A stretch of DNA of 64,000 bases. Source: Acinetobacter pittii. Its GTDB lineage: Bacteria > Pseudomonadota > Gammaproteobacteria > Pseudomonadales > Moraxellaceae. Position numbers and translations under genes: made by a program. The DNA lies in assembly GCF_034064985.1 (NCBI RefSeq), contig NZ_CP139249.1, positions 186,001-250,000 of the forward strand, given 5' to 3'. Below are positions 45,502-62,225 of this stretch, in pieces. The number at the start of each line of letters is the position of its first letter. Positions within the stretch are counted from its first letter, which is position 1. The notes below the pieces were generated by a model. The model was not told the DNA's origin and ran no database searches. It saw nothing but the letters and a program-made list of their open reading frames with translations.

Positions 45502-45771
45502 ATTTTTCCGTATAGGTATCTTAATGAATTAAAGTTTATAAAATAGGTCTTATTTATATGACCTTATTTGGTGGCGCATTATAATCTTATCTTTTTCATA
45601 TTTCTTATTTTAAAATTATATTTTTTATAAATTAAGAACGTATATTTTTCTGTTAAAAGAATAAATTGGTTTTAGAAAAAATATTTTGAAGCTCAAGTTT
45701 ATAATAAAATTTTAGTTAAATACCTTCATTCAAAACAGTATGAATATACTATGCCTAAAATTACAGGCAAC

Positions 45772-45806
45772 AAAAAACCCCATAAATCAAATATTCATGA
45801 GGTTTA
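45772..45806 (-). terminator. tRNA-type terminator left behind by integration
   Basis: On the minus strand AACCTCAT, a loop and ATGGGGTT are followed by TTTTTTG, immediately after the tRNA 3' fragment. This is what one expects downstream of an intact tRNA-Thr gene. Confidence 0.65.
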
Positions 45807-45810
45807 ATGA

Positions 45811-45855
45811 TGGTGCCGGCACACGGATTCGAACTGTGGACCTACTGATTACAAG
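45811..45855 (-). repeat. 3' fragment of tRNA-Thr(TGT): island attachment site
   Basis: Read on the minus strand, the 45 bases run from the anticodon loop (CTTGTAATC, anticodon TGT) through the variable loop and T-arm (GTTCGAATC) to the acceptor strand and encoded CCA (GTGCCGGCACCA). The 5' half (acceptor 5' strand, D-arm and anticodon 5' stem) is missing, so it is not a functional tRNA. Such fragments are the direct repeat left when a tyrosine-integrase element inserts in a tRNA 3' end. Orientation implies that the intact tRNA and the other island end lie to the right. Confidence 0.85.
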
Positions 45856-45937
45856 TACGAACAAGTACCTATATTTTTAATAATAAAAACAATGGATTGA
45901 GTGTATGGGTTGATAAGAAATTCAATAAAAACAATGA

Positions 45938-49259: not shown

Positions 49260-51302
49260 GTGAACGTTGAGTTATTAAAGGAATTATATAAAGAATTGAT
49301 AAATATTGATCAATTAGAAGGATGGTATAAGAGTTACAAATCTCGAGTTTCCGAAGTTGAAGAAATGAGAGAAAAGATGACTAAAGGCTATAAATTAAAT
49401 CCTCAAAGTGATGAGAAGTTCTTATTATCTTTATTAAAAATTCAAAAAAATGGAATAGCTTCAAGAGGACAGTCTAATATTAGTGATGTAGCTTATAACG
49501 AATTAATAAATAATAAGGAATTTCTTGAGATTTTAGAAAATGTAATCAAAGAACCAACCTATGAAAATTATATTAATTTTAGAAGAGTTAGTAAGCGTAT
49601 ATTAACTTTAGTGGGTAGCAATAATTTTCCTTTAATTTTTAATAGAGCGGTCGCAGCCTGTAATCTAGATTTGTCCACTGTTGTAGATGAAAGTAAATTT
49701 CATCAATTATTTAAATATCTTGATAAAGAGAAAATTCTTGATATTCCTCAAGAGGTAAAAGATAAAAATTGGTATGCCCAGAATATTTTCTTAGTAAGTA
49801 AATTTCGTGAAATACTAAGTGATCTTAAAGGTATAGTTGAGATTGATAAGTATTGGATAAATATATTTATATGGGAAATATATGTAAAAAAAGTCGAGCT
49901 TTCAAAGCAGAAAATTTCAGTACCAAATAAAGTGGATACCGATGAGGGTGTATCAGAAACCAATAGATATGATGAGAAAAAAATGCAAAAGATAGTTCAG
50001 CCATTAAACCGTATTTTATTTGGTGCAGCAGGAACAGGGAAAACATATCATACAATTAATCATGCACTTAGTATTCTAGATGATGAAACATTAGAAGAGC
50101 TGGAAAAAGTAGAACGTATAGAACTGAAAAATAGGTTTGATCAATATAAAGAGAATGGCAACATTAAGTTTGTTACCTTCCATCAGAGCTTTAGCTATGA
50201 AGATTTTATAGAAGGTATTCGTGCAGAAGTAAGCAATGGCGGTCTTAGCTATAGTATTAAACCAGGTGTTTTTAAAGAGCTGTGTGAAAAAGCGGCTATT
50301 AATAAAAAAGCGACTGATGAAAGTATAAAAATTGCTATTTCAGAATTAACTGAAAAGGCAAAAAATGAGGAAATTACTTTTTATACAAAAAAGGGAGCTG
50401 AATTTAAAGTTAAAAGTAATTCAAGTGGTACGCTAATCGCGACTACTTCTAAAGATACCGAAGTAACATTGGCAAAAAGCTATATCACTAACTATCTATT
50501 AAATCAGTCTGACGAAATAATTGATCAAAGAAGTTATGAATGGGCAATCGCTAAATCTTTACGTACAGTAATTGATTATAGATCTAATACAAGCAAAGAA
50601 AATAATGAACGTTTTATTCTTATCATTGATGAAATTAATAGGGGGAATATTTCCCGTATTTTTGGTGAGTTGATTACTCTAATTGAAGATTCTAAACGTC
50701 AAGGCAATGATGAAGAGTTAAGTACAATTTTGCCTTACTCAAAAGAAGAATTTAGTATTCCCAATAATCTTTATATTATCGGGACAATGAATAGTTCAGA
50801 CCGTTCACTAACCGGGCTGGATGTTGCGTTGCGTCGACGTTTTGAGTTTATTGAAATGCCACCAAAACCTGAGTTGTTAAGAGATCAGGAAGAGAACGAG
50901 ATAGAGATTGATGGCATTAATATTGTGAAATTACTGACTGTAATGAATCAACGCATCGAAATACTATTAGATAGAGATCACTGTATAGGGCATGCCAATT
51001 TTATGCCTTTAAAGGTGGAACCAAGAATCGAAAAATTATCAAAAATTTTCCAGCAAAAAATTATCCCACAATTACAGGAATATTTCTTTGAGGATTGGGA
51101 AAAGATCGACGCAGTTTTAAATGGAAATGGAATGCTTCATAAAAAGTATGATCCAAGTTCACAAAATAGATTATTTAAAGATCAAAGCTTGATTAATCGC
51201 AGTATTTGGGAGATTAAGCCTGAAGCATTTAATAACGTGAAGAATTATATTGCAATTTATAACGAAACATCCGAAGTTGAAAATGATTTAAATGGATATT
51301 GA
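49260..51302 (+). CDS. mcrB: McrB-like AAA+ GTPase of a modification-dependent restriction system
   Basis: The 680-residue protein has a C-terminal AAA+ motor: Walker A GAAGTGKT at 255-262, FVTFHQSFSYEDFIEGIRA, Walker B LIIDEINRGN near 456, and sensor-like GTMNSSDRSL with LDVALRRRFEF. These are McrB hallmarks; the motor uses GTP and drives DNA cleavage with McrC. The first 230 residues, which normally set DNA specificity, are helical and unlike the methylcytosine-binding domain of E. coli McrB as far as I can see. Start is GTG, after GAGAAATA. It overlaps mcrC by a few bases. Confidence 0.9.
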   Translation: MNVELLKELYKELINIDQLEGWYKSYKSRVSEVEEMREKMTKGYKLNPQSDEKFLLSLLKIQKNGIASRGQSNISDVAYNELINNKEFLEILENVIKEPTYENYINFRRVSKRILTLVGSNNFPLIFNRAVAACNLDLSTVVDESKFHQLFKYLDKEKILDIPQEVKDKNWYAQNIFLVSKFREILSDLKGIVEIDKYWINIFIWEIYVKKVELSKQKISVPNKVDTDEGVSETNRYDEKKMQKIVQPLNRILFGAAGTGKTYHTINHALSILDDETLEELEKVERIELKNRFDQYKENGNIKFVTFHQSFSYEDFIEGIRAEVSNGGLSYSIKPGVFKELCEKAAINKKATDESIKIAISELTEKAKNEEITFYTKKGAEFKVKSNSSGTLIATTSKDTEVTLAKSYITNYLLNQSDEIIDQRSYEWAIAKSLRTVIDYRSNTSKENNERFILIIDEINRGNISRIFGELITLIEDSKRQGNDEELSTILPYSKEEFSIPNNLYIIGTMNSSDRSLTGLDVALRRRFEFIEMPPKPELLRDQEENEIEIDGINIVKLLTVMNQRIEILLDRDHCIGHANFMPLKVEPRIEKLSKIFQQKIIPQLQEYFFEDWEKIDAVLNGNGMLHKKYDPSSQNRLFKDQSLINRSIWEIKPEAFNNVKNYIAIYNETSEVENDLNGY

Positions 51303-51304
51303 TT

Positions 51305-52633
51305 ATGTCGAATATCACTATCCGTGAATATGCATATTTAAGAGTTTCACAGAATCCTCCTCTGCAGAATCACAAGTTAGATTTTGCGGAAATTTCACAG
51401 AGTGGATTTGATTACTTATTTCAACTGAATCAGGATCTGCTCAGAAATGGGCAGCGAATTTTAAAGTTAGGTAGAACAGCATCGGAAATTCAAGTACAGA
51501 ATTTTGTTGGGGTTATTGAAACCCCATGCGGTACAGAAATTGAGATCTTACCAAAGCATGCTGATTCAGTAGAGGATAATGGTAATGCTAGGGCTATCTT
51601 GATTAAAATCTTGAAACAGGTTTTACAGTTGCCACAGCGTGATACAGGTCTTGCCTCGATTGAAAAATTTAAAGTACCTCTAACAGACTGGTTCTATGCA
51701 CAATTTTTAGATGCTTTGCAGAAACTTTATCGTACAGGGGTGCGATTTGATTATCAGCGAGTAGAGGCTGAAGAAAACTTCTTACGAGGACAGTTAGATA
51801 CAGCACAACAAATGCGAAAACCTTTAACGAGGCAACATCAATTAAGTATAAAACATGATATTTTTACGTCAAATCGGGCAGAGAATCGGTTGATTCGGTC
51901 ATGTATTGATGTGGTCTGTAAAAGAGCTAAGACTGCTAATTTGTGGCGAACATCACATGAGTTTCATTTACTGTTCTCAGAAGTGCCTCAATCTACAAAT
52001 TATAGGGAAGATTTTAAAAAATGGAAAAATGATCGACTAATGTCACATTATTCCGATATAAGGTATTGGTGTGAATTGATTTTAGGCAATGAAATCCCAT
52101 TTGCTGTAAAAGGTATTAATCAGGCAAGAAGTATTCTATTTCCTATGGAAAAGTTATTTGAAAAATATGTAGAAATACAATTATCAAAGCAACTTATAAA
52201 AGGAGCAAAGCTTGTGGCTCAGAAATCTAGCAAATACTTAGCTCAATATAATTCAAAAGATATATTTAATTTAATACCAGATTTAGCTATCCAATATTAT
52301 TGTGAACACTCAAAGTCTAAAAAATATTTGATCCTTGATACTAAATGGAAGCTTATTAATAGCAATAATATAGAGGATAAGTTTGGATTAAAACAAAGCG
52401 ATATGTATCAGATGTTTGCCTATAACCATATGTATCAGGGCCACACATCAGATATTGTATTAATCTATCCAAAAAATAAAAATTTCCAGATAGCACTAGA
52501 ACCGTTTGAGTTGAACATTCATAAATTATTGAAGACTGGACTGCAACCAAAAATTTGGGTAGTTCCATTTGACTTAGAACGTAGCGAGCTTATTTTAGAT
52601 AATTTGACGATTGCTGGGTTGCATTCTAAATGA
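51305..52633 (+). CDS. mcrC: McrC-like endonuclease subunit
   Basis: About 442 residues. The N-terminal part (TIREYAYLRV, NFVGVIETPCGTEIEILPK) and the middle domain match McrC. The C-terminal PD-(D/E)xK nuclease core is visible as LIPDLAIQYY followed by LILDTKWK, near residues 325-350. McrC joins the McrB hexamer and cuts DNA between recognised sites. The ATG at 51305 begins MSNITIREY and lies within the end of mcrB, giving translational coupling. The system looks intact. Confidence 0.9.
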   Translation: MSNITIREYAYLRVSQNPPLQNHKLDFAEISQSGFDYLFQLNQDLLRNGQRILKLGRTASEIQVQNFVGVIETPCGTEIEILPKHADSVEDNGNARAILIKILKQVLQLPQRDTGLASIEKFKVPLTDWFYAQFLDALQKLYRTGVRFDYQRVEAEENFLRGQLDTAQQMRKPLTRQHQLSIKHDIFTSNRAENRLIRSCIDVVCKRAKTANLWRTSHEFHLLFSEVPQSTNYREDFKKWKNDRLMSHYSDIRYWCELILGNEIPFAVKGINQARSILFPMEKLFEKYVEIQLSKQLIKGAKLVAQKSSKYLAQYNSKDIFNLIPDLAIQYYCEHSKSKKYLILDTKWKLINSNNIEDKFGLKQSDMYQMFAYNHMYQGHTSDIVLIYPKNKNFQIALEPFELNIHKLLKTGLQPKIWVVPFDLERSELILDNLTIAGLHSK

Positions 52634-54105: not shown

Positions 54106-54885
54106 TTATTTAGATACTTTTATCATGTATTCAGTCTTAACTTTTTCAAAAATATATTCATAGTATGCATCAGGATTATTTCTAATTTCGATACTAACGA
54201 TGTCACTAACACGTTCATCTCGAATCCAAAAATCTCCATCAAAGATGTAGCAAGAGACTCTAACAAATGGTAGTTTTCTACCTTCTGCTTTGTATGGGGC
54301 ATTGTAATAAGGGGCAGATTTGACAAAAAAGTACCCAATGACAAATGGAAGTTTTCTACTTAGTTCTAGTAATGCTAAGAATGATGCTTTTGATGAGAAA
54401 TGTGTATCTACAACTTCAATTGCAATAAATGGGCTGTGGTTAGTGCAATTCAACGAATTAGGTCTACCTAATAAATCAAATCGTACATAGCCATTTTCTG
54501 ATACGGCGAAAGAAACTTCATCCTTCCATTCATAATCTTTTATAGTTTTTATGGTATGAAGTTTTTTATCTGTAAAGCTACGAAAGAAATAGGTTTTTAA
54601 TTTTATAGACGGATTTGCCTTTAAGTATGAGAGAAGATTCCTAATAGTACGATCATGTTCTTGAGAGTCTTTTTGTCTGTCTAAATTATGGCGTACAACA
54701 CCTTTTCTATAGAAATGAGGTAGATCCTCTCTATTTCTAATGAATAATTCATAATTACAATCTTCTGAGTCATATAATTGCTGAGTTCTAGCAAGTGCTA
54801 GTTTTTCTGGATCTCTTAATTCCTGAGGTGTAATTGTTATCCAGAGACCATCTTTTTCGTATACAGCTTGTTCATGTAAAGGCAT
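54106..54885 (-). CDS. Unknown protein with a faint PD-(D/E)xK-like motif
   Basis: The 259-residue soluble protein has no family I recognise. Residues about 130-165 read YVRFDLLGR, a spacer, then PFIAIEVVDTHFSS. An acidic residue followed by a hydrophobic strand with Glu is the pattern of the nuclease-like fold seen in CoiA-like and repair proteins, but the usual lysine is replaced by valine. AAGGAAAAG precedes the ATG. It lies 171 bp downstream of the RelA/SpoT-type gene, on the same strand, and may belong with it. Confidence 0.55.
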   Translation of the reverse strand: MPLHEQAVYEKDGLWITITPQELRDPEKLALARTQQLYDSEDCNYELFIRNREDLPHFYRKGVVRHNLDRQKDSQEHDRTIRNLLSYLKANPSIKLKTYFFRSFTDKKLHTIKTIKDYEWKDEVSFAVSENGYVRFDLLGRPNSLNCTNHSPFIAIEVVDTHFSSKASFLALLELSRKLPFVIGYFFVKSAPYYNAPYKAEGRKLPFVRVSCYIFDGDFWIRDERVSDIVSIEIRNNPDAYYEYIFEKVKTEYMIKVSK

Positions 54886-55056: not shown

Positions 55057-56034
55057 TTAATTTAATAAGCTAATACCTATATCTGTCGCCAGATACTCGA
55101 TAATTTTATAATCTAGTGGCCATTGTTCAGTTACGTAATATTTTCTATTTTCTATTAACCAATAGACAAATAGAATGTAACTTTGTTGATAGAAATTGAA
55201 AGAAGCATATCGCTGTTTAATTTTATTGACTAAGTATGGATGTACTTCTAAAAGACTTGAAATATTATCTATAAGTTGATCATTAATAAATTCTTCAAAG
55301 GTGTCAAAAACAATTAAAGATGATTTCTGATTTTTAGAATATAAACCAGTTTTTGATAGATATAAGGAATCTAATCTCTCAATAATTTTAAATTCTGTAA
55401 TAGGTCCCGCATTAAGATCATTAGTAGTTTCAACAAAGAAATTATCGGTTGTTTCAATTAAAGCCATACACTTAGCTACAGTCCGGAGAACTGTAGGCTT
55501 TACCTTTCGTTTACTTTTATAAACAGCATCATGAGTTAACTCAGCATGTGCATGTTGTAAAAGAGTGCGTATCTGCACTTCACAAGTAATATCTGAAGTT
55601 ATTTTTATTCCTTTATATTCTATCTCATCTTTAGGTCTTAAAATATAATGCATTGATTGATAAGAGAAAAGTAGAGGGTCTTTACTTTTCTCTTCTTCAA
55701 AGTCTCGAGCTACTAAGGTTGTCCATTTTTCATGTGATTGTATAATTTGACCTATTTTTGCAACCTCATCAGTTAATAAAACTACAAATCGAATTCCAAC
55801 TTTATCTTCTATTTCTAGGTAGGGGTCTATATAAGGCTTATTTCTATAAAAAGCTTTATCAATTAGAGATTTCCGATTTTTTGTCCTTACTTTAACTGGA
55901 ATTTTTAAAAATACGTCCGATTCAATTTGATGGGTTACCAAAGAATTAACTATTTGAGAGACGATATACTCTCCCCATGCAGTATAGATAGGTTCTTCAG
56001 TAAGCCATCTTTCTAAAAATTCATTTTCTGTCAT
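55057..56034 (-). CDS. RelA/SpoT-type nucleotide synthetase without hydrolase domain
   Basis: The 325 residues contain an apparently intact synthetase domain: Arg50, Lys52 and Ser56 in VRTKNRKSLIDK, Asp77-Gly80-Arg82 in EDKVGIRFVV, Tyr125-Gln126-Ser127-His129 in FSYQSMHY, and Glu152-Gln154-Arg156-Thr157 in CEVQIRTLLQ. These bind ATP, magnesium and the acceptor nucleotide in (p)ppGpp synthetases and in toxic relatives (toxSAS, CapRel). No HD hydrolase domain exists; residues 205-325 are an unrecognised helical region. It lies 41 bp after a NdpA-like gene in the same operon. Role in growth arrest or phage defence is inferred. Confidence 0.85.
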   Translation of the reverse strand: MTENEFLERWLTEEPIYTAWGEYIVSQIVNSLVTHQIESDVFLKIPVKVRTKNRKSLIDKAFYRNKPYIDPYLEIEDKVGIRFVVLLTDEVAKIGQIIQSHEKWTTLVARDFEEEKSKDPLLFSYQSMHYILRPKDEIEYKGIKITSDITCEVQIRTLLQHAHAELTHDAVYKSKRKVKPTVLRTVAKCMALIETTDNFFVETTNDLNAGPITEFKIIERLDSLYLSKTGLYSKNQKSSLIVFDTFEEFINDQLIDNISSLLEVHPYLVNKIKQRYASFNFYQQSYILFVYWLIENRKYYVTEQWPLDYKIIEYLATDIGISLLN

Positions 56035-56075
56035 TTCTTATGAATCAGTCTGGATTTGATAATAATTTTTGTCCA

Positions 56076-57128
56076 CTATGTAGGGCTTCCATTTTCATCT
56101 GGTTCTCCTTGAATAGGTTCGATAGTAATATCTTTACTGAAAGTATCAGGATCAGCCTCAATTTTAACATTATTGCCGAAAGTGACTTTGTGAAGTTTTA
56201 ACTGGTTTTTTATATGCTCGATATCTTTTGTAAAAGGAGTAATAGGAATTTCTCTTTTTCTAAGAAAATTTCTATAGTCATCAATTACTTTTTTATCAAA
56301 AAAACTTTCAGCAAATTCAATAGGGCTTACAGTCGAGGACTGCCCGAGTTTAAGGTAAGTAGTTAATGCATTGGTGAGTTCATATTTTTCTTCTGTTGTT
56401 TTACCATCTAAATCCAGAATAAATTTCTTCGTTGCTTCATAGAAAGTTTTTGTAGTACGAGCACTTGTTTCTGGATACCCACAACCAGCAAATGTATTAT
56501 AGAAATACTCAGCAGAAGCTTTACCATCAACTTGGCTAATTTGATTATCTGAAATCAAGACCAACCATTTATCATTAAGATTTGTTGAAGATGGGTCATA
56601 ATCTTCTTTCTCACAAAAACCCACCGTTTTATAGAGTTTAGAAGATGGTGTTAATAAAAGATGTTTAATATGTTTTAATGAAATTTGTCCATTTTCTGTG
56701 GTAACTCTTTCATATCCACTATGAATATCTGCTTTCATTACACCTAAAATTTTTTTATTAGATACTCCATATGTACCCGTAAAAACAACAACAATACCCC
56801 CTATAATATTCCTTCCTTTTTCAAATTGTGCTTTAGCTAATTTATAGGCAATTTTATACGAAGACTCAATGAAGTCTTCAGAATTATCATCAATCGCTTT
56901 ATCTATGATATTTGGTAAGCTATCAGTCTCTAGATCAACAATATGCATTGTTACAGCTTTAGAGTCTGAGCCTAATGCTCCTATTACACGACTATCAAAA
57001 TCCATCTGAGCAGATGTATCGAATCTTGTATATTCAGTACTTTTCTCTGGTGTTTCCATAGTATCTGATTTCTTTTGAAAAATTTGATGAATAATAATTC
57101 GATGAACAGAAAGATTGGTGATCGACAT
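56076..57128 (-). CDS. NdpA/YejK-like nucleoid-associated protein
   Basis: The 350 residues show the layout of the 37-kDa nucleoid-associated family. The opening is ITNLSVHRIIIHQIF; then come a central block with GGIVVVFTGTYGVSNKKILGVMKADI and WLVLISDNQ with EYFYNTFAGCG. The SPIEFAESFFDK segment and a C-terminal VTFGNNVKIEADPDTFSKDITI strand pattern close it. E. coli YejK is a DNA- and topoisomerase-binding nucleoid protein. An accessory copy beside a RelA/SpoT synthetase and an AbiC-like gene suggests a defence or toxin-control role. First gene of a leftward operon. Confidence 0.8.
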   Translation of the reverse strand: MSITNLSVHRIIIHQIFQKKSDTMETPEKSTEYTRFDTSAQMDFDSRVIGALGSDSKAVTMHIVDLETDSLPNIIDKAIDDNSEDFIESSYKIAYKLAKAQFEKGRNIIGGIVVVFTGTYGVSNKKILGVMKADIHSGYERVTTENGQISLKHIKHLLLTPSSKLYKTVGFCEKEDYDPSSTNLNDKWLVLISDNQISQVDGKASAEYFYNTFAGCGYPETSARTTKTFYEATKKFILDLDGKTTEEKYELTNALTTYLKLGQSSTVSPIEFAESFFDKKVIDDYRNFLRKREIPITPFTKDIEHIKNQLKLHKVTFGNNVKIEADPDTFSKDITIEPIQGEPDENGSPT

Positions 57129-57267: not shown

Positions 57268-58602
57268 ATGAATGATTCAAATTTGTTACCACCTGATAAA
57301 CAACTTTCAAAAATTGAAAAACAAATTAAATGGTCAATTTTTATTGCTTTAGTTTTAATAGCTTTAGTATTAGTAATGTACTTTATTCATTTCAATGGGG
57401 ACTTTCAAAAAGATCCTGATAAATGGGGGACGTTTGGCGATTTTGTTGGTGGAACTTTAAACCCTGTACTAGCAGCATTAGCTTTTTATTGGCTAACATC
57501 ATCAATACGATTACAAATTCAGGAGTTAAGGGATACACGTATTGTTCTACAAGAGTCAGCAGAACATCAGAAAATAATAGCTGAACTAGATGAAAAAAAT
57601 GTAAACACACAGCAAGAAATTTTAAAACTCCAAAAAAGTAGTTTAGAAATGCAGATTGAGGCATCACAACAACAGCAGCAACAAATTGCTATTCAAAATT
57701 TTGAAAATATTTTTTTTGAATTATTGAAAACGAAAAATGAGGCTATTCAGGGGATTTACTTTAAAACCCGTAGAGGATCATATTCTACGGGTAATATAGA
57801 GGTTGAAACAGTATATGGTAAGGAAGCGATTAATTTGCATTTAAAGTATTTTTCAGAGCATGTTTCAGGAAGCTGGAAAAAATATTATGAGAGTATGTTA
57901 ATCAGTACTTTTAGTAGTTATTTTAGAGTTTGTTATCAAATAGTTAGATTAATAGATAGTAATACAACTTTAAGAGAAATAGATAAAATTGAAAATAAAC
58001 CTTTTTCTAATAAACAGAAACAATATTTTGATATTTTTAAAGCAACTTTACAGCAAGCAGAACTTGAAGCATTATTTTATAATTGTTTGAATGGTTATAG
58101 TAAGTATAAGAGAATATTAGAAAAATATGGGATTTTTGAGCCTTTGTTTATCCTAAGGTATGATAATTATAGTAAGTTAATAAATCAGTTTGCTTATATG
58201 TATGATAGAAGTGCTTTTGATAGAAATAAGTTTTTTTTAAAATATTTTGATGATCTTGAGAAAATTAATTGCAATTTAAATAGTAAAGATATTAATCTTA
58301 ATATTATATTTTTGAATAAGATGGGGCTTGTAAATAAAAATATTCGTAATGATCTTTATGATGATGAAGTACTTGGAGATGATTATGAAGATTTTTATGC
58401 CAAATTTATTAAGAAAAAAAGCGAATATGAGAAACAAATATTAAATGAAAAAAATCTAAGTGAGAGTGTTGATAATGAATATATTGAAAGGTATATCCAA
58501 ATTTTGGATAGTATAGAAGACTTGGAAACTATTTATTATATTGTGAAGTATAATATTAATTATGAGGAATACGTCAAGTCTAGACTTACTACTACATATT
58601 AG
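57268..58602 (+). CDS. AbiC-like putative phage abortive-infection membrane protein
   Basis: The 444 residues begin with a membrane helix (WSIFIALVLIALVLVMYFI, about 29-47), then the family's WGTFGDFVGGTLNPVLAALAFYWL second helix. A coiled coil (about 85-145) starts at QIQELRDTRIVLQES. A long helical cytoplasmic domain begins NFENIFFELLKTKNEAIQGI. This is the pattern of the putative AbiC family. Members are thought to stop phage growth by killing or arresting the infected cell; the mechanism is unknown. It is divergent from the NdpA/RelA-type operon. Very AT-rich codon use suggests recent transfer. Confidence 0.85.
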   Translation: MNDSNLLPPDKQLSKIEKQIKWSIFIALVLIALVLVMYFIHFNGDFQKDPDKWGTFGDFVGGTLNPVLAALAFYWLTSSIRLQIQELRDTRIVLQESAEHQKIIAELDEKNVNTQQEILKLQKSSLEMQIEASQQQQQQIAIQNFENIFFELLKTKNEAIQGIYFKTRRGSYSTGNIEVETVYGKEAINLHLKYFSEHVSGSWKKYYESMLISTFSSYFRVCYQIVRLIDSNTTLREIDKIENKPFSNKQKQYFDIFKATLQQAELEALFYNCLNGYSKYKRILEKYGIFEPLFILRYDNYSKLINQFAYMYDRSAFDRNKFFLKYFDDLEKINCNLNSKDINLNIIFLNKMGLVNKNIRNDLYDDEVLGDDYEDFYAKFIKKKSEYEKQILNEKNLSESVDNEYIERYIQILDSIEDLETIYYIVKYNINYEEYVKSRLTTTY

Positions 58603-58730: not shown

Positions 58731-60851
58731 TCAATCACTATCATCTAATAATTCATCTTCATAACCTGTACGAGCGTTATACCTTATATTGTTAATTGTG
58801 ATAAATTTTTTCTGTCTGACTGAAACATCATAAAAGCTATATCCAAATGCTGTTAGGTTTAAGAATTTAATTTTCTTATGCTTGTAATGTTTCTTGTCAT
58901 TAAAAATCTTTACGTGACAATACTTCTTAAGAAAGTTGATAGATTTCCCGTCTTGGAAAAGTATCGAATCATCATTAAATACCTCAACGTACTTAGATGG
59001 ATATTTTCTTAGTGTTTCAAGAAGAGGCTTTGTGTTAGCAATTTTATGAAGTGCCGCATTCATAAGCTGCGTAATATCATAATAGCTGTGAGTTTTATTT
59101 CTAAAATCTTTTCGATCAAAAGCTTTTCGTAAGTGTTGGATGACGCTGAGGACTATAGGATTATTTTCATATTCATGAGCTATCTTAATAACCTGATTTG
59201 TTCTATTTGCTACAAGGCTTTCTTGTACATCTTTTAGATTATCTAACTTTTCTGAAAGAATCATGGCTTCATCAAAAATACCTTTATAGATAGGTTCCTC
59301 TTGTATCTCATAGTAAATACTGTCGTCATCAAATATTGAATCCTCTATTTTTTCTCTTAGGTTTTTAAAGCCTTTAGTAGTTCTTAGGCACTCAAAAAGT
59401 AGATCTATGACTTTTGGAATACCTTCCTCACGACGATCTTTTAATGTTTTCTCACTCTGTTCAAAAGCATTCCTTATTGCGTCAGGAATTAATCCATCTG
59501 AACTGATGATCTTGACTGTTCCATTTGGTAAAAGCTGTAATAGCCGATATTTAAGATAATTGAGATTGCTATAGCATTGCTGAATATCTAATCGATAGAA
59601 GCGAGCCACGATACTTGCGGTATTGTGCCTGATAATATTGTTATCTGACCAAAAACCCTTACATTCGATGAGGTCAGTTGTCAGACCGTTCATGATTTGA
59701 GTTTTATCAATTTTAGTATTAATAATATCCGAAAATTCTTTGAACTTTTCTTTATCTAATGAAAGTTCTATGCCATGTAAAAAAGCAATTAGTCCCATAT
59801 AGTTACTTTTATTCGATTTTCTATATTTTGCAAATAGCCTATCGCAATTAGTTTCATAATCATCAATGGGACTTGGTAAGTGAATATATACAGGTGGTGT
59901 TGCTGCCCGTAATCGCCCAATGAATTGCACAATTTCTTCTGGATGAGCATTGTTGCCAATAATATGTACGCTATCGACCTCATCATTGCTATTTTTTAGG
60001 TTAATTGCCTCATCTAATATAGAAGTACAAATAACTACATCAAATTCAGTGTTAATACGCTCAAGACTCAATAAATCCATACAGCTATGACTAGTAATCT
60101 GCTCACGATTAATCAGCTGGGTTTTATAACCTTTTTGCTCATACATCTCTTTGACTTGATTGGCTAACTTGATGTCATTAACACGTGCAATGACAACCTT
60201 TTTCACATTTTGTTTGCGATTTTTTTCTAAACGTTTTTGTACTTCCCATATCCATGAGAGAGGTTCTGCCGTTTGTGGATTTATAATCCTGATACTTCTT
60301 TTATTATTAGATAATTTTGAAAAACTATAAAAGTGACTGATTTGAATATCTAATTTTTCAAAAAGATACTTGGTTAATGTCGCCGTTAGAAAGAGTACAT
60401 GATCAAATTTTTGAGATTGAATGATGTGCAGTATAGATTGAATAGCCTGTTCCCTATAGTAGCCTACGGCATATAGTTTTTGAGCTTCATCTACGACGAT
60501 GACAGCATCCTTTGATAAATGAGGAGCGAATTTAGAAAATTGATCGTAGGTCATTACCAAATGTTTTTTGGTAATCGACTTAATTTCATCTTTAGGTATA
60601 TTTTTCTTACCATGAATAAAAACGAACCGATCACTTTGATATAGCTCTTCTAACTGTTTTACCTGTGCGACTAAAGGGCATAAGAGAATAACTTGCTTCG
60701 ACTCAGATAAGGTTTCTAATACATAGGAGCTTTTGCCTGTTCCAGTACCTCCAACAATTAAAGTATTTCCATGTAGTAGTGCTGGGATTTCATCAGCAAT
60801 AAACTGCTTAGAATTAAGATGAAACTCTATTGGTTTAGGTAAATTTGACAT
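58731..60851 (-). CDS. DEAD/DEAH-box superfamily 2 helicase linked to the integrase
   Basis: About 706 residues. Helicase motifs are complete: motif I GGTGTGKSS at 34-42, motif II DEAQ at 121-124, motif III LTATL near 158, motif VI QFIGRLRAA near 318. The last 300 residues are unrecognised and end in an acidic DELLDDSD tail. AGAGGA before the ATG at 60851 sets the start; 14 upstream codons are possible but overlap a hairpin. It is the gene after the integrase on the same strand (about 70 bp apart). A role in replication or processing of the excised element is inferred. Confidence 0.82.
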   Translation of the reverse strand: MSNLPKPIEFHLNSKQFIADEIPALLHGNTLIVGGTGTGKSSYVLETLSESKQVILLCPLVAQVKQLEELYQSDRFVFIHGKKNIPKDEIKSITKKHLVMTYDQFSKFAPHLSKDAVIVVDEAQKLYAVGYYREQAIQSILHIIQSQKFDHVLFLTATLTKYLFEKLDIQISHFYSFSKLSNNKRSIRIINPQTAEPLSWIWEVQKRLEKNRKQNVKKVVIARVNDIKLANQVKEMYEQKGYKTQLINREQITSHSCMDLLSLERINTEFDVVICTSILDEAINLKNSNDEVDSVHIIGNNAHPEEIVQFIGRLRAATPPVYIHLPSPIDDYETNCDRLFAKYRKSNKSNYMGLIAFLHGIELSLDKEKFKEFSDIINTKIDKTQIMNGLTTDLIECKGFWSDNNIIRHNTASIVARFYRLDIQQCYSNLNYLKYRLLQLLPNGTVKIISSDGLIPDAIRNAFEQSEKTLKDRREEGIPKVIDLLFECLRTTKGFKNLREKIEDSIFDDDSIYYEIQEEPIYKGIFDEAMILSEKLDNLKDVQESLVANRTNQVIKIAHEYENNPIVLSVIQHLRKAFDRKDFRNKTHSYYDITQLMNAALHKIANTKPLLETLRKYPSKYVEVFNDDSILFQDGKSINFLKKYCHVKIFNDKKHYKHKKIKFLNLTAFGYSFYDVSVRQKKFITINNIRYNARTGYEDELLDDSD

Positions 60852-60863
60852 AAAAAATCCTCT

Positions 60864-60887
60864 GGATATGCCTGTAAGGGCATATCC
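60864..60887 (-). promoter_or_regulatory. Hairpin between integrase and helicase genes
   Basis: GGATATGCC and GGCATATCC pair around a six-base loop, ending five bases before the AGAGGA ribosome site of the helicase gene; the T run after it makes it partly terminator-like. It could attenuate helicase expression. Confidence 0.4.
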
Positions 60888-60921
60888 ATTCAAAATTTAA
60901 AATAAGTGAGAAGAGGTTTAA

Positions 60922-62118
60922 CTAAGCGACATTCGCCGTTGGAATTGGGTGATTACTCTGGGCACGTATAGCCGCAGCAACTTCCTCTGAAGCTTGTTTC
61001 AATGTGCTGGACTGCAAATGTGCATAGCGCTGAGTAGTCTGTGGTGAGGCGTGACCTAACAGATGCTGAACGACATATAGGCTTTGGCCACTGTTCACAG
61101 CTAAACTGGCAAAGTTATGCCTTAAGTCATGGATACGGATATTTCGAATCGAAGCAGCTTTCATGATGCGTTGGAAGGTCTTTCGCATGTCGTTAAACGG
61201 TTGACCTGTCATCGGGTTCGCAAAAATAAATAAATGCTGCCGTGATAGTGAATGCAGTATCGCTAATGCATCCTGATTCAAAGTAATGCGTCGAGCCTTT
61301 CCAGACTTGTTTTCACCTAAAAGCCAAACCCCTGTAGTGAGATCAATATCAGCCCACTTCATGTCCATTGCTTCACGCTTACGTACTCCTGTAAGCAGTA
61401 AAAACTTGACGATAGCGACAATAATCAAGTTGTCTATGCCATGCTGATGCGGTGCATTCAGTACATCCATTAAACGCTTGATCTCTTGAGCATTGAGATA
61501 ACGCTCAATTTGATTGTTTTCTTTAAACTTGGATACCTTGCTTACAGGATTAACATGTATCAAGTCATGATTAATTGCCATGTTGAACATGACAGAGAGC
61601 AGTGCCCGAACCCGATTGATCGAGGCATTCGTTAAGCCTTTTGAACGAAGTTCGGTCAATAGCTTATTGAGCATTCCAGCATTGATATCCTCAAATGGAT
61701 AATCTCCAATGACTAGTAAAATATGCATCCGTAATTTTGCCTCATCATCCTTATAAGACTTTTTACGCATCTCAGCACTTGGCATATAGATCGTTAAAGC
61801 AAACTCACGCAATGTATTTGTAGGTTTGACCTCATCTTCGAATGGCGCTAGGCCTTGAGCGATTCGTTGATGAAATCCCTGCATTTGAGAGACCAGTTTC
61901 TCTAAGTTTTGATCAAAATCAGCATGAGAAAATGTACCTAAACTTTTTGAGGCTTTCTTACCTTGAAAGGTTAAACGAGCTAGAGTACGTACATGTTGTG
62001 CAGTAACCACAAAGCGTAATCCAATCACTTTTAGGTCTGGACGATACTTGCGAATATCGAATTCTTTACCCGATTCAAATTGATTGAGTTGGGTATTTTT
62101 CTCTAAAAACTTTACCAT
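60922..62118 (-). CDS. Tyrosine-type site-specific integrase
   Basis: The 398-residue recombinase carries an N-terminal arm-binding part, a core-binding helical domain (about 100-190) and the catalytic domain. The active-site set is complete: Arg246 (GVRKREAMD), Lys272 (NKSGKARR), His330-Arg333 (HDLRHNF), His356 (LLGHASP) and nucleophile Tyr365 (RYAHL). GAGGA lies 7 bases before the ATG at 62118; a start 27 bases earlier is less likely. The tRNA-Thr fragment at 45811 is its presumed attachment product. A helicase gene follows on the same strand. Confidence 0.95.
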   Translation of the reverse strand: MVKFLEKNTQLNQFESGKEFDIRKYRPDLKVIGLRFVVTAQHVRTLARLTFQGKKASKSLGTFSHADFDQNLEKLVSQMQGFHQRIAQGLAPFEDEVKPTNTLREFALTIYMPSAEMRKKSYKDDEAKLRMHILLVIGDYPFEDINAGMLNKLLTELRSKGLTNASINRVRALLSVMFNMAINHDLIHVNPVSKVSKFKENNQIERYLNAQEIKRLMDVLNAPHQHGIDNLIIVAIVKFLLLTGVRKREAMDMKWADIDLTTGVWLLGENKSGKARRITLNQDALAILHSLSRQHLFIFANPMTGQPFNDMRKTFQRIMKAASIRNIRIHDLRHNFASLAVNSGQSLYVVQHLLGHASPQTTQRYAHLQSSTLKQASEEVAAAIRAQSNHPIPTANVA

Positions 62119-62225
62119 TTTTTGGTCCTCTGATTGATGTGCCAAAAAAATAATATCTGTTTAAAAAATCTTTAAAAAACCAAGCTTTAATTATGTTTTT
62201 TAATCTTTTTAATTGAGTGTGGTTA

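What the first reader, a model, noticed from the sequence alone, without database searches (positions are those of the whole stretch)
55057..57128. NdpA-like nucleoid protein paired with a hydrolase-less RelA/SpoT synthetase: candidate new defence or growth-arrest module
Two genes 41 bp apart on the minus strand encode a YejK/NdpA-like protein and a synthetase-only RelA/SpoT protein with all key residues visible. They sit in a tRNA-integrated island with McrBC and an AbiC-like gene. RelA/SpoT-type toxins (toxSAS, CapRel) are known to arrest growth during phage attack, but a pairing with a nucleoid-associated protein is not one I know as a described system. The nucleoid protein could sense phage DNA, or act as antitoxin.
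Basis: partly seen in the sequence, partly recalled or inferred. Interest (0 to 1): 0.8.

Follow-up and report, generated by a model that had tools for sequence, protein, structure and literature searches.

The report
Mobile nucleoid-protein and alarmone-synthetase gene pair
Two neighbouring genes on a bacterial genome island, found side by side in many other mobile elements too, encode a DNA-coating-type protein and an alarm-nucleotide-type enzyme that probably together stop cell growth when a phage attacks.

Summary
Window 55057-56034(-) encodes a synthetase-only RelA/SpoT protein (RSH) whose active-site residues are present. Window 56076-57128(-) encodes a YejK/NdpA-type (NA37) protein. They form a sharply conserved unit: among 398 genomes of the window's phylum each subfamily occurs in 3, the same 3, adjacent. 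In viral contigs 62 of 62 RSH loci with upstream sequence have NA37 sequence directly before them. In 72 distinct pairs the genes overlap by 4 or 1 nt in 51; over 60 pairs the two proteins diverge in step (r=0.93). Carriers include prophages, plasmids and integrase islands, and 6 of 5426 complete E. coli genomes. Nine of 72 pairs adjoin a SLATT/DUF4231-like gene.

Corrections: the 41-bp gap exists only because the window's NA37 has an in-frame stop 14 codons before its frame would end; 59 of 59 aligned relatives run on. The tRNA-Thr lies outside the window, but a 46-bp copy of its 3' end marks the island's left edge.

Best reading: a growth-arrest/phage-defence module in which NA37 restrains the synthetase and senses infection. 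The pairing is shown; function is inferred. DefensePredictor (2026) already validated an E. coli defence system with a YejK domain; I could not see its partner, so it may be this system.

The parts
55057..56034 (-). synthetase-only RelA/SpoT homologue (RSH), 325 aa: alarmone-synthetase-like core (about 1-210) plus an extra helical C-terminal region (211-325)
56076..57128 (-). NA37 / YejK-NdpA-type protein, 350 aa, upstream partner
56076..56078 (-). in-frame TAG that ends the window's NA37 early; 59 of 59 other proteins of alignment A8 continue 13-20 residues further
56031..56075 (-). NA37 frame after the early stop: 14 sense codons and a stop that overlaps the RSH ATG by 4 nt, the arrangement seen in 30 of 72 distinct pairs
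   Evidence: sequence; gap table
57268..58602 (+). divergent putAbiC-domain gene (neighbour, not part of the conserved pair)
   Evidence: PF16872 E 7.9e-15
49260..52633 (+). McrB-like AAA+ and McrC genes of the same island (neighbours)
58731..62145 (-). DEAD/AAA helicase-like gene (58731-60893) and tyrosine integrase (60922-62145) of the island
45762..45856 (+). 95-bp repeat, left att-type edge of the island; 46 bp of its last 48 are an exact copy of the 3' end of tRNA-Thr(TGT)

Best explanation
A mobile two-gene growth-arrest module used mainly against phages. NA37 is encoded first and the overlapping genes suggest coupled translation. NA37 binds the RSH and keeps it off (antitoxin/regulator), and its YejK-type body watches DNA or a phage product. 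On infection the RSH is released and transfers pyrophosphate from ATP to an acceptor: either GTP/GDP/ATP, making a (pp)pGpp- or (pp)pApp-type alarmone, or the tRNA CCA end. That stops growth and phage production. Shown here: conserved pairing, overlapping genes, co-divergence, presence of the catalytic residues, predicted folds, and carriage by mobile elements. Inferred: coupling, binding, inhibition, sensing, toxicity, the product and the defence effect.
Against: No activity, toxicity or phage data. NA37 is larger than most type II antitoxins (recalled). The synthetase core is structurally nearer to RelP/RelQ than to FaRel2. The FaRel2 residue R77 has no strictly conserved counterpart (R64 in only 52%). 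Both proteins are acidic (window pI 5.8 and 5.5), which gives no support for simple DNA or tRNA binding. The window's own NA37 has lost its conserved tail while its RSH is unbroken, so this copy may be altered or the tail may be dispensable. The three chimeras (two distinct sequences) could be recombination debris or assembly errors.
Confidence: 0.5

Rival explanations
1. NA37 is an activator or scaffold and not an antitoxin: the RSH is silent until NA37, on phage DNA or a replication complex, switches it on.
For: NA37 belongs to a DNA-associated family (Lee and Marians 2013 as cited in PMC10561277, passages). In the viral loci RSH is not seen without at least part of NA37 unless the contig ends, which equally fits an obligate activator. 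DS-5 in PMC13092281 is a precedent for a two-gene defence system that its authors think is not toxin-antitoxin.
Against: In L099, L110 and L111 the RSH is full-length although the NA37 body is gone.
Confidence: 0.2
2. A signalling system: NA37 senses, RSH makes an alarmone-type messenger, and a SLATT 2TM membrane protein is the effector. Where SLATT is absent another effector, or alarmone toxicity itself, does the work.
For: 9 of 72 distinct pairs have a DUF4231/SLATT-like gene: 7 upstream, 1 convergent downstream, 1 overlapping downstream. SLATT proteins are predicted effectors of nucleotide-activated systems (recalled from Burroughs 2015, not held; Pfam's own names for SLATT say '2TM effector').
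Against: 63 of 72 pairs have none by this model, the window included; the window's divergent putAbiC gene has no SLATT hit in Pfam. The model was built from 7 of these genes themselves, so only L069 and L145 are finds beyond its seeds, and Pfam scores are modest.
Confidence: 0.12
3. A non-defence regulatory device of mobile elements: NA37 tunes gene expression or transfer (like NdpA2 of ICE PAPI-1) and RSH reports host starvation to the element.
For: NdpA2, a YejK homologue, controls PAPI-1 transfer (PMC8565334, passages). Some pairs lie beside Q antiterminators (13 of 81 downstream genes scanned) or S24/CI-type genes (7 of 78 upstream genes scanned).
Against: The pair occurs in unrelated elements without a fixed third gene, which is typical of cargo. 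NdpA2 is 97% identical to the host NdpA, whereas this NA37 scores only 13.5 bits against YejK's own model.
Confidence: 0.13

Closest known systems
toxSAS toxin-antitoxin modules (FaRel2/ATfaRel2, FaRel)
   Same: Small synthetase-only RSH encoded beside a partner gene; same ATP/Mg/acceptor residues by motif spacing
CapRel (fused toxin-antitoxin phage sensor)
   Different: Here synthetase and partner are two genes, and the structural match stops before the C-terminal region
DefensePredictor E. coli system with a YejK domain (PMC13092281)
   Same: YejK-type domain in an experimentally validated anti-phage system
   Different: Other genes not named in the text I saw; may be identical to this pair
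PADLOC PDC-S33 (defence candidate; single-gene by its name, my reading)
   Same: Matches 59 of 60 RSH members at E<=1e-5
   Different: No NA37 partner model was hit; the window match covers only profile positions 51-175 of 349
E. coli YejK/NdpA
   Different: 13% identity; far below the YejK equivalog cut-off (13.5 against 341 bits)

Membership tests
RSH synthetase (small alarmone synthetase superfamily) | RelA_SpoT synthetase domain with catalytic residues and no HD hydrolase | tested here: met
   PF04607 above cut-off and the only Pfam hit at E<=1; residues invariant in 60 of 60; fold
NA37 (YejK/NdpA) family | NA37 domain over its curated cut-off and YejK-like fold | tested here: met
   [not shown]
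YejK equivalog (housekeeping) | NF001557 score over cut-off | tested here: not met
   13.5 against 341 bits
toxSAS toxin-antitoxin system | conserved adjacent partner gene | tested here: met
toxSAS toxin-antitoxin system | growth inhibition by the RSH and rescue by the partner | not testable with these tools
   needs expression
toxSAS toxin-antitoxin system | product is pyrophosphorylated tRNA or a toxic alarmone | not testable with these tools
   needs biochemistry
CapRel | antitoxin domain fused to the synthetase in one chain | tested here: not met
   in the window the conserved partner is a separate ORF; a further inhibitory domain in the RSH's C-terminal region is not excluded
CapRel | pseudo-zinc-finger C-terminal fold | tested here: inconclusive
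   PDB rows span residues 1-207 of the model only; C-terminal region not predicted alone
Kiwa (KwaB) | KwaB fold in the NA37 partner | tested here: inconclusive
   [not shown]
DefensePredictor YejK-domain system | same gene composition | not testable with these tools
   figure and supplement not readable here

The most novel reading that the evidence does not exclude
A new kind of phage defence in which a nucleoid-type protein reads the state of DNA (phage genome, replication or supercoiling) and directly gates an alarmone-type synthetase, with a SLATT membrane protein as an optional nucleotide-triggered effector in some carriers. This would link DNA sensing to RSH signalling.
Probability: 0.17. 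Interest if true: 0.85.

Novelty: new variant of a known kind. Interest (0 to 1): 0.62.

Why it matters
The alarmone-synthetase toxins I know of are held off by small antitoxins, hydrolases or fused domains (partly recalled; PMC11782079 passages). A YejK-type partner would be a new way to control them and gives a testable reason why accessory YejK proteins sit on phages and islands. It offers a defined two-gene unit, present in E. coli prophages, for asking whether a nucleoid-type protein can sense phage DNA and trigger growth arrest.

Full report
WHAT IS THERE. The two minus-strand ORFs are as described. RSH (55057-56034, 325 aa) hits only PF04607 (E 1.4e-14) at E<=1, so it is synthetase-only as far as Pfam shows; NA37 (56076-57128, 350 aa) hits only PF04245 (E 3.3e-11). 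The genome has one NA37 match, this one, and two other RSH-type matches, in open frames of 778 and 702 aa, the second under the cut-off.

ISLAND. A 95-bp repeat at window 45762-45856 recurs exactly at G000:C1:261545-261639. Of its last 48 bp, 46 lie in a tRNA-Thr(TGT) at G000:C1:261594-261669, right of the window, at the tRNA's 3' end. In four listed relatives (G014, G016, G061, G150) the left flank lies within about 230 bp of the same tRNA part; two others (G066, G067) match through the repeat without a break. The stretch between the repeats is about 29.8 kb. Its part inside the window holds McrBC, putAbiC, helicase-like and integrase genes. It may be more than one element, because the integrase lies far from both ends. 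The genus is Acinetobacter by inference only: the one plasmid match to the island is an A. baumannii record, 4% of the query at 99.1%; other genera were not tested.

PAIRING. Plasmid records gave Klebsiella NZ_CP092398.1 and Ochrobactrum NZ_CP022602.1 with the two genes overlapping and two Neisseria gonorrhoeae records; in the one examined (L007) the RSH lies in two frames. A Rhizobium pair (L009) and a Streptomyces pair (L065) are very distant. The Rhizobium partner has no Pfam hit but matches the NA37 profile by hhalign, probability 94%, E 8.9e-8. Not every plasmid RSH hit has a partner: L008 and L010 have none, and the remaining weaker hits were not examined. Genome contigs gave two more pairs, a Hyphomicrobiales and a Sphingobacteriales MAG. 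Viral contigs gave 37 NA37 loci and 64 RSH loci. Of the NA37 loci 36 of 37 have the RSH next, the other (L090) ending at a contig edge. Of the RSH loci 62 of 64 have NA37 sequence directly upstream, the other two (L135, L149) starting at a contig edge. Of the 62, 58 have a full-length partner (341 aa or more), 3 (L099, L110, L111) only its C-terminal part, and 1 (L150) has partner and RSH both in pieces. These sets overlap and hold near-duplicates. By the last 120 residues of both proteins there are 72 distinct pairs over the sources held; L007 and L150 were dropped there by a gap limit, and the E. coli loci L152 and L153 came later.

SURVEY. In 398 genomes of the window's phylum NA37 of this subfamily occurs in 3 (E<=1e-6). 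RSH matches at E<=1e-15 occur in 26, of which 3 are better than 1e-100 and the next is 6.6e-34. The 3 are the same genomes and the genes adjoin. In 175 genomes of the genus NA37 occurs in 2 and strong RSH in the same 2 (5.4e-88 or better); five more genomes have weak RSH matches. None of the 28 weaker RSH loci of the two surveys has NA37 in its stretch. One of the 3 and one of the 2 is the window's own genome. E. coli: 4, 3 and 2 of 5426 complete genomes match in three searches, 6 distinct genomes, all places on chromosomes and all with the two genes adjacent.

ANATOMY. Gene overlap is 4 nt in 30 and 1 nt in 21 of 72 distinct pairs (starts called mechanically, so larger overlaps there may be start errors). 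The window is the one pair with a 41-nt gap, caused by the in-frame TAG; 59 of 59 other NA37 proteins of alignment A8 run on. A8 holds the window and 59 relatives from the search for related loci with NA37 of at least 330 aa. Pairwise distances of the two proteins over these 60 pairs correlate at 0.93; the highest of 2000 permutations was 0.19. This shows co-inheritance, not contact.

SETTING. 'Viral contigs' are predicted viral; some may be host islands. I gave 81 of 125 downstream and 78 of 141 upstream neighbour ORFs (two nearest per pair) to the family scans, leaving out mainly short ORFs and near-duplicates. Downstream, 13 of 81 are Q antiterminators; others are terminase, portal or integrase genes. 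Upstream, 7 of 78 have S24 and 6 DUF4231 domains. A SLATT/DUF4231-like gene adjoins 9 of 72 distinct pairs, 7 of which contributed to the model used; Pfam scores are modest, some under cut-off. In two E. coli the pair sits beside the late-control D gene of a prophage with P2-type genes, inserted by guaA; in the other four it sits in islands with an integrase next to tRNA-Thr (3; one integrase has an internal stop) or guaA (1). Three of the six have the SLATT/DUF4231 gene.

LITERATURE. DefensePredictor (PMC13092281) lists a 'YejK nucleoid-associated domain' among domains newly validated in E. coli defence (section 5; outline, sections 7 and 15 and passages). The partner is not stated in what I saw. 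Lambdoid Pseudomonas phages PseuP_222/224 carry NdpA/YejK genes about 88% identical to each other (PMC10305613, passages); my NA37 query found no match in the phage collection, so I cannot say that they belong here. NdpA2 regulates ICE PAPI-1 transfer (PMC8565334, passages). My searches listed no title or abstract start on the pair; the library holds only open-licence papers, listings are capped, and two papers that I know from memory to be relevant were not held.

JUDGEMENT. A conserved mobile two-gene unit: secure. A growth-arrest or defence module: likely, about 0.8 summed over the antitoxin, activator and signalling readings. NA37 as antitoxin and sensor is the leading form. Novelty is limited by toxSAS/CapRel and by the possible identity with the DefensePredictor system.

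Noticed in passing
L005, L018, L019, L035, L061, L062, L069, L070, L145: A SLATT/DUF4231-like small membrane-protein gene adjoins 9 of 72 distinct pairs, in three arrangements.
   Followed up: partly
L099:7330-8004, L110:3194-4036, L111:3028-3870: Partner proteins keep only the NA37 C-terminal part, preceded by NinB (L099) or a Pol-beta-palm-like stretch (L110), beside a full-length RSH.
   Followed up: partly
L008, L010, L011, L027-L031, L038-L060: A wider set of solo RSH proteins (mostly 320-440 aa) without NA37 in the stretch held, for example on a 3.5-kb Klebsiella plasmid and a filamentous Vibrio phage.
   Followed up: no
L007 (NZ_CP119140.1) and L150: Neisseria gonorrhoeae record L007: NA37 unbroken, RSH in two frames; viral contig L150 (host not checked): both genes in pieces. 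The 2.17-Mb gonococcal record is filed as a plasmid.
   Followed up: partly
window 54106-54885 (-): 259-aa ORF downstream of the RSH without a Pfam hit above cut-off (best NCH1 E 0.01).
   Followed up: no
G000:C1:254235-261101 (right of the window): 2288-aa repeat-rich, adhesin-like ORF (by eye) between the island's integrase and the tRNA-Thr.
   Followed up: no
[not shown]
   Followed up: partly
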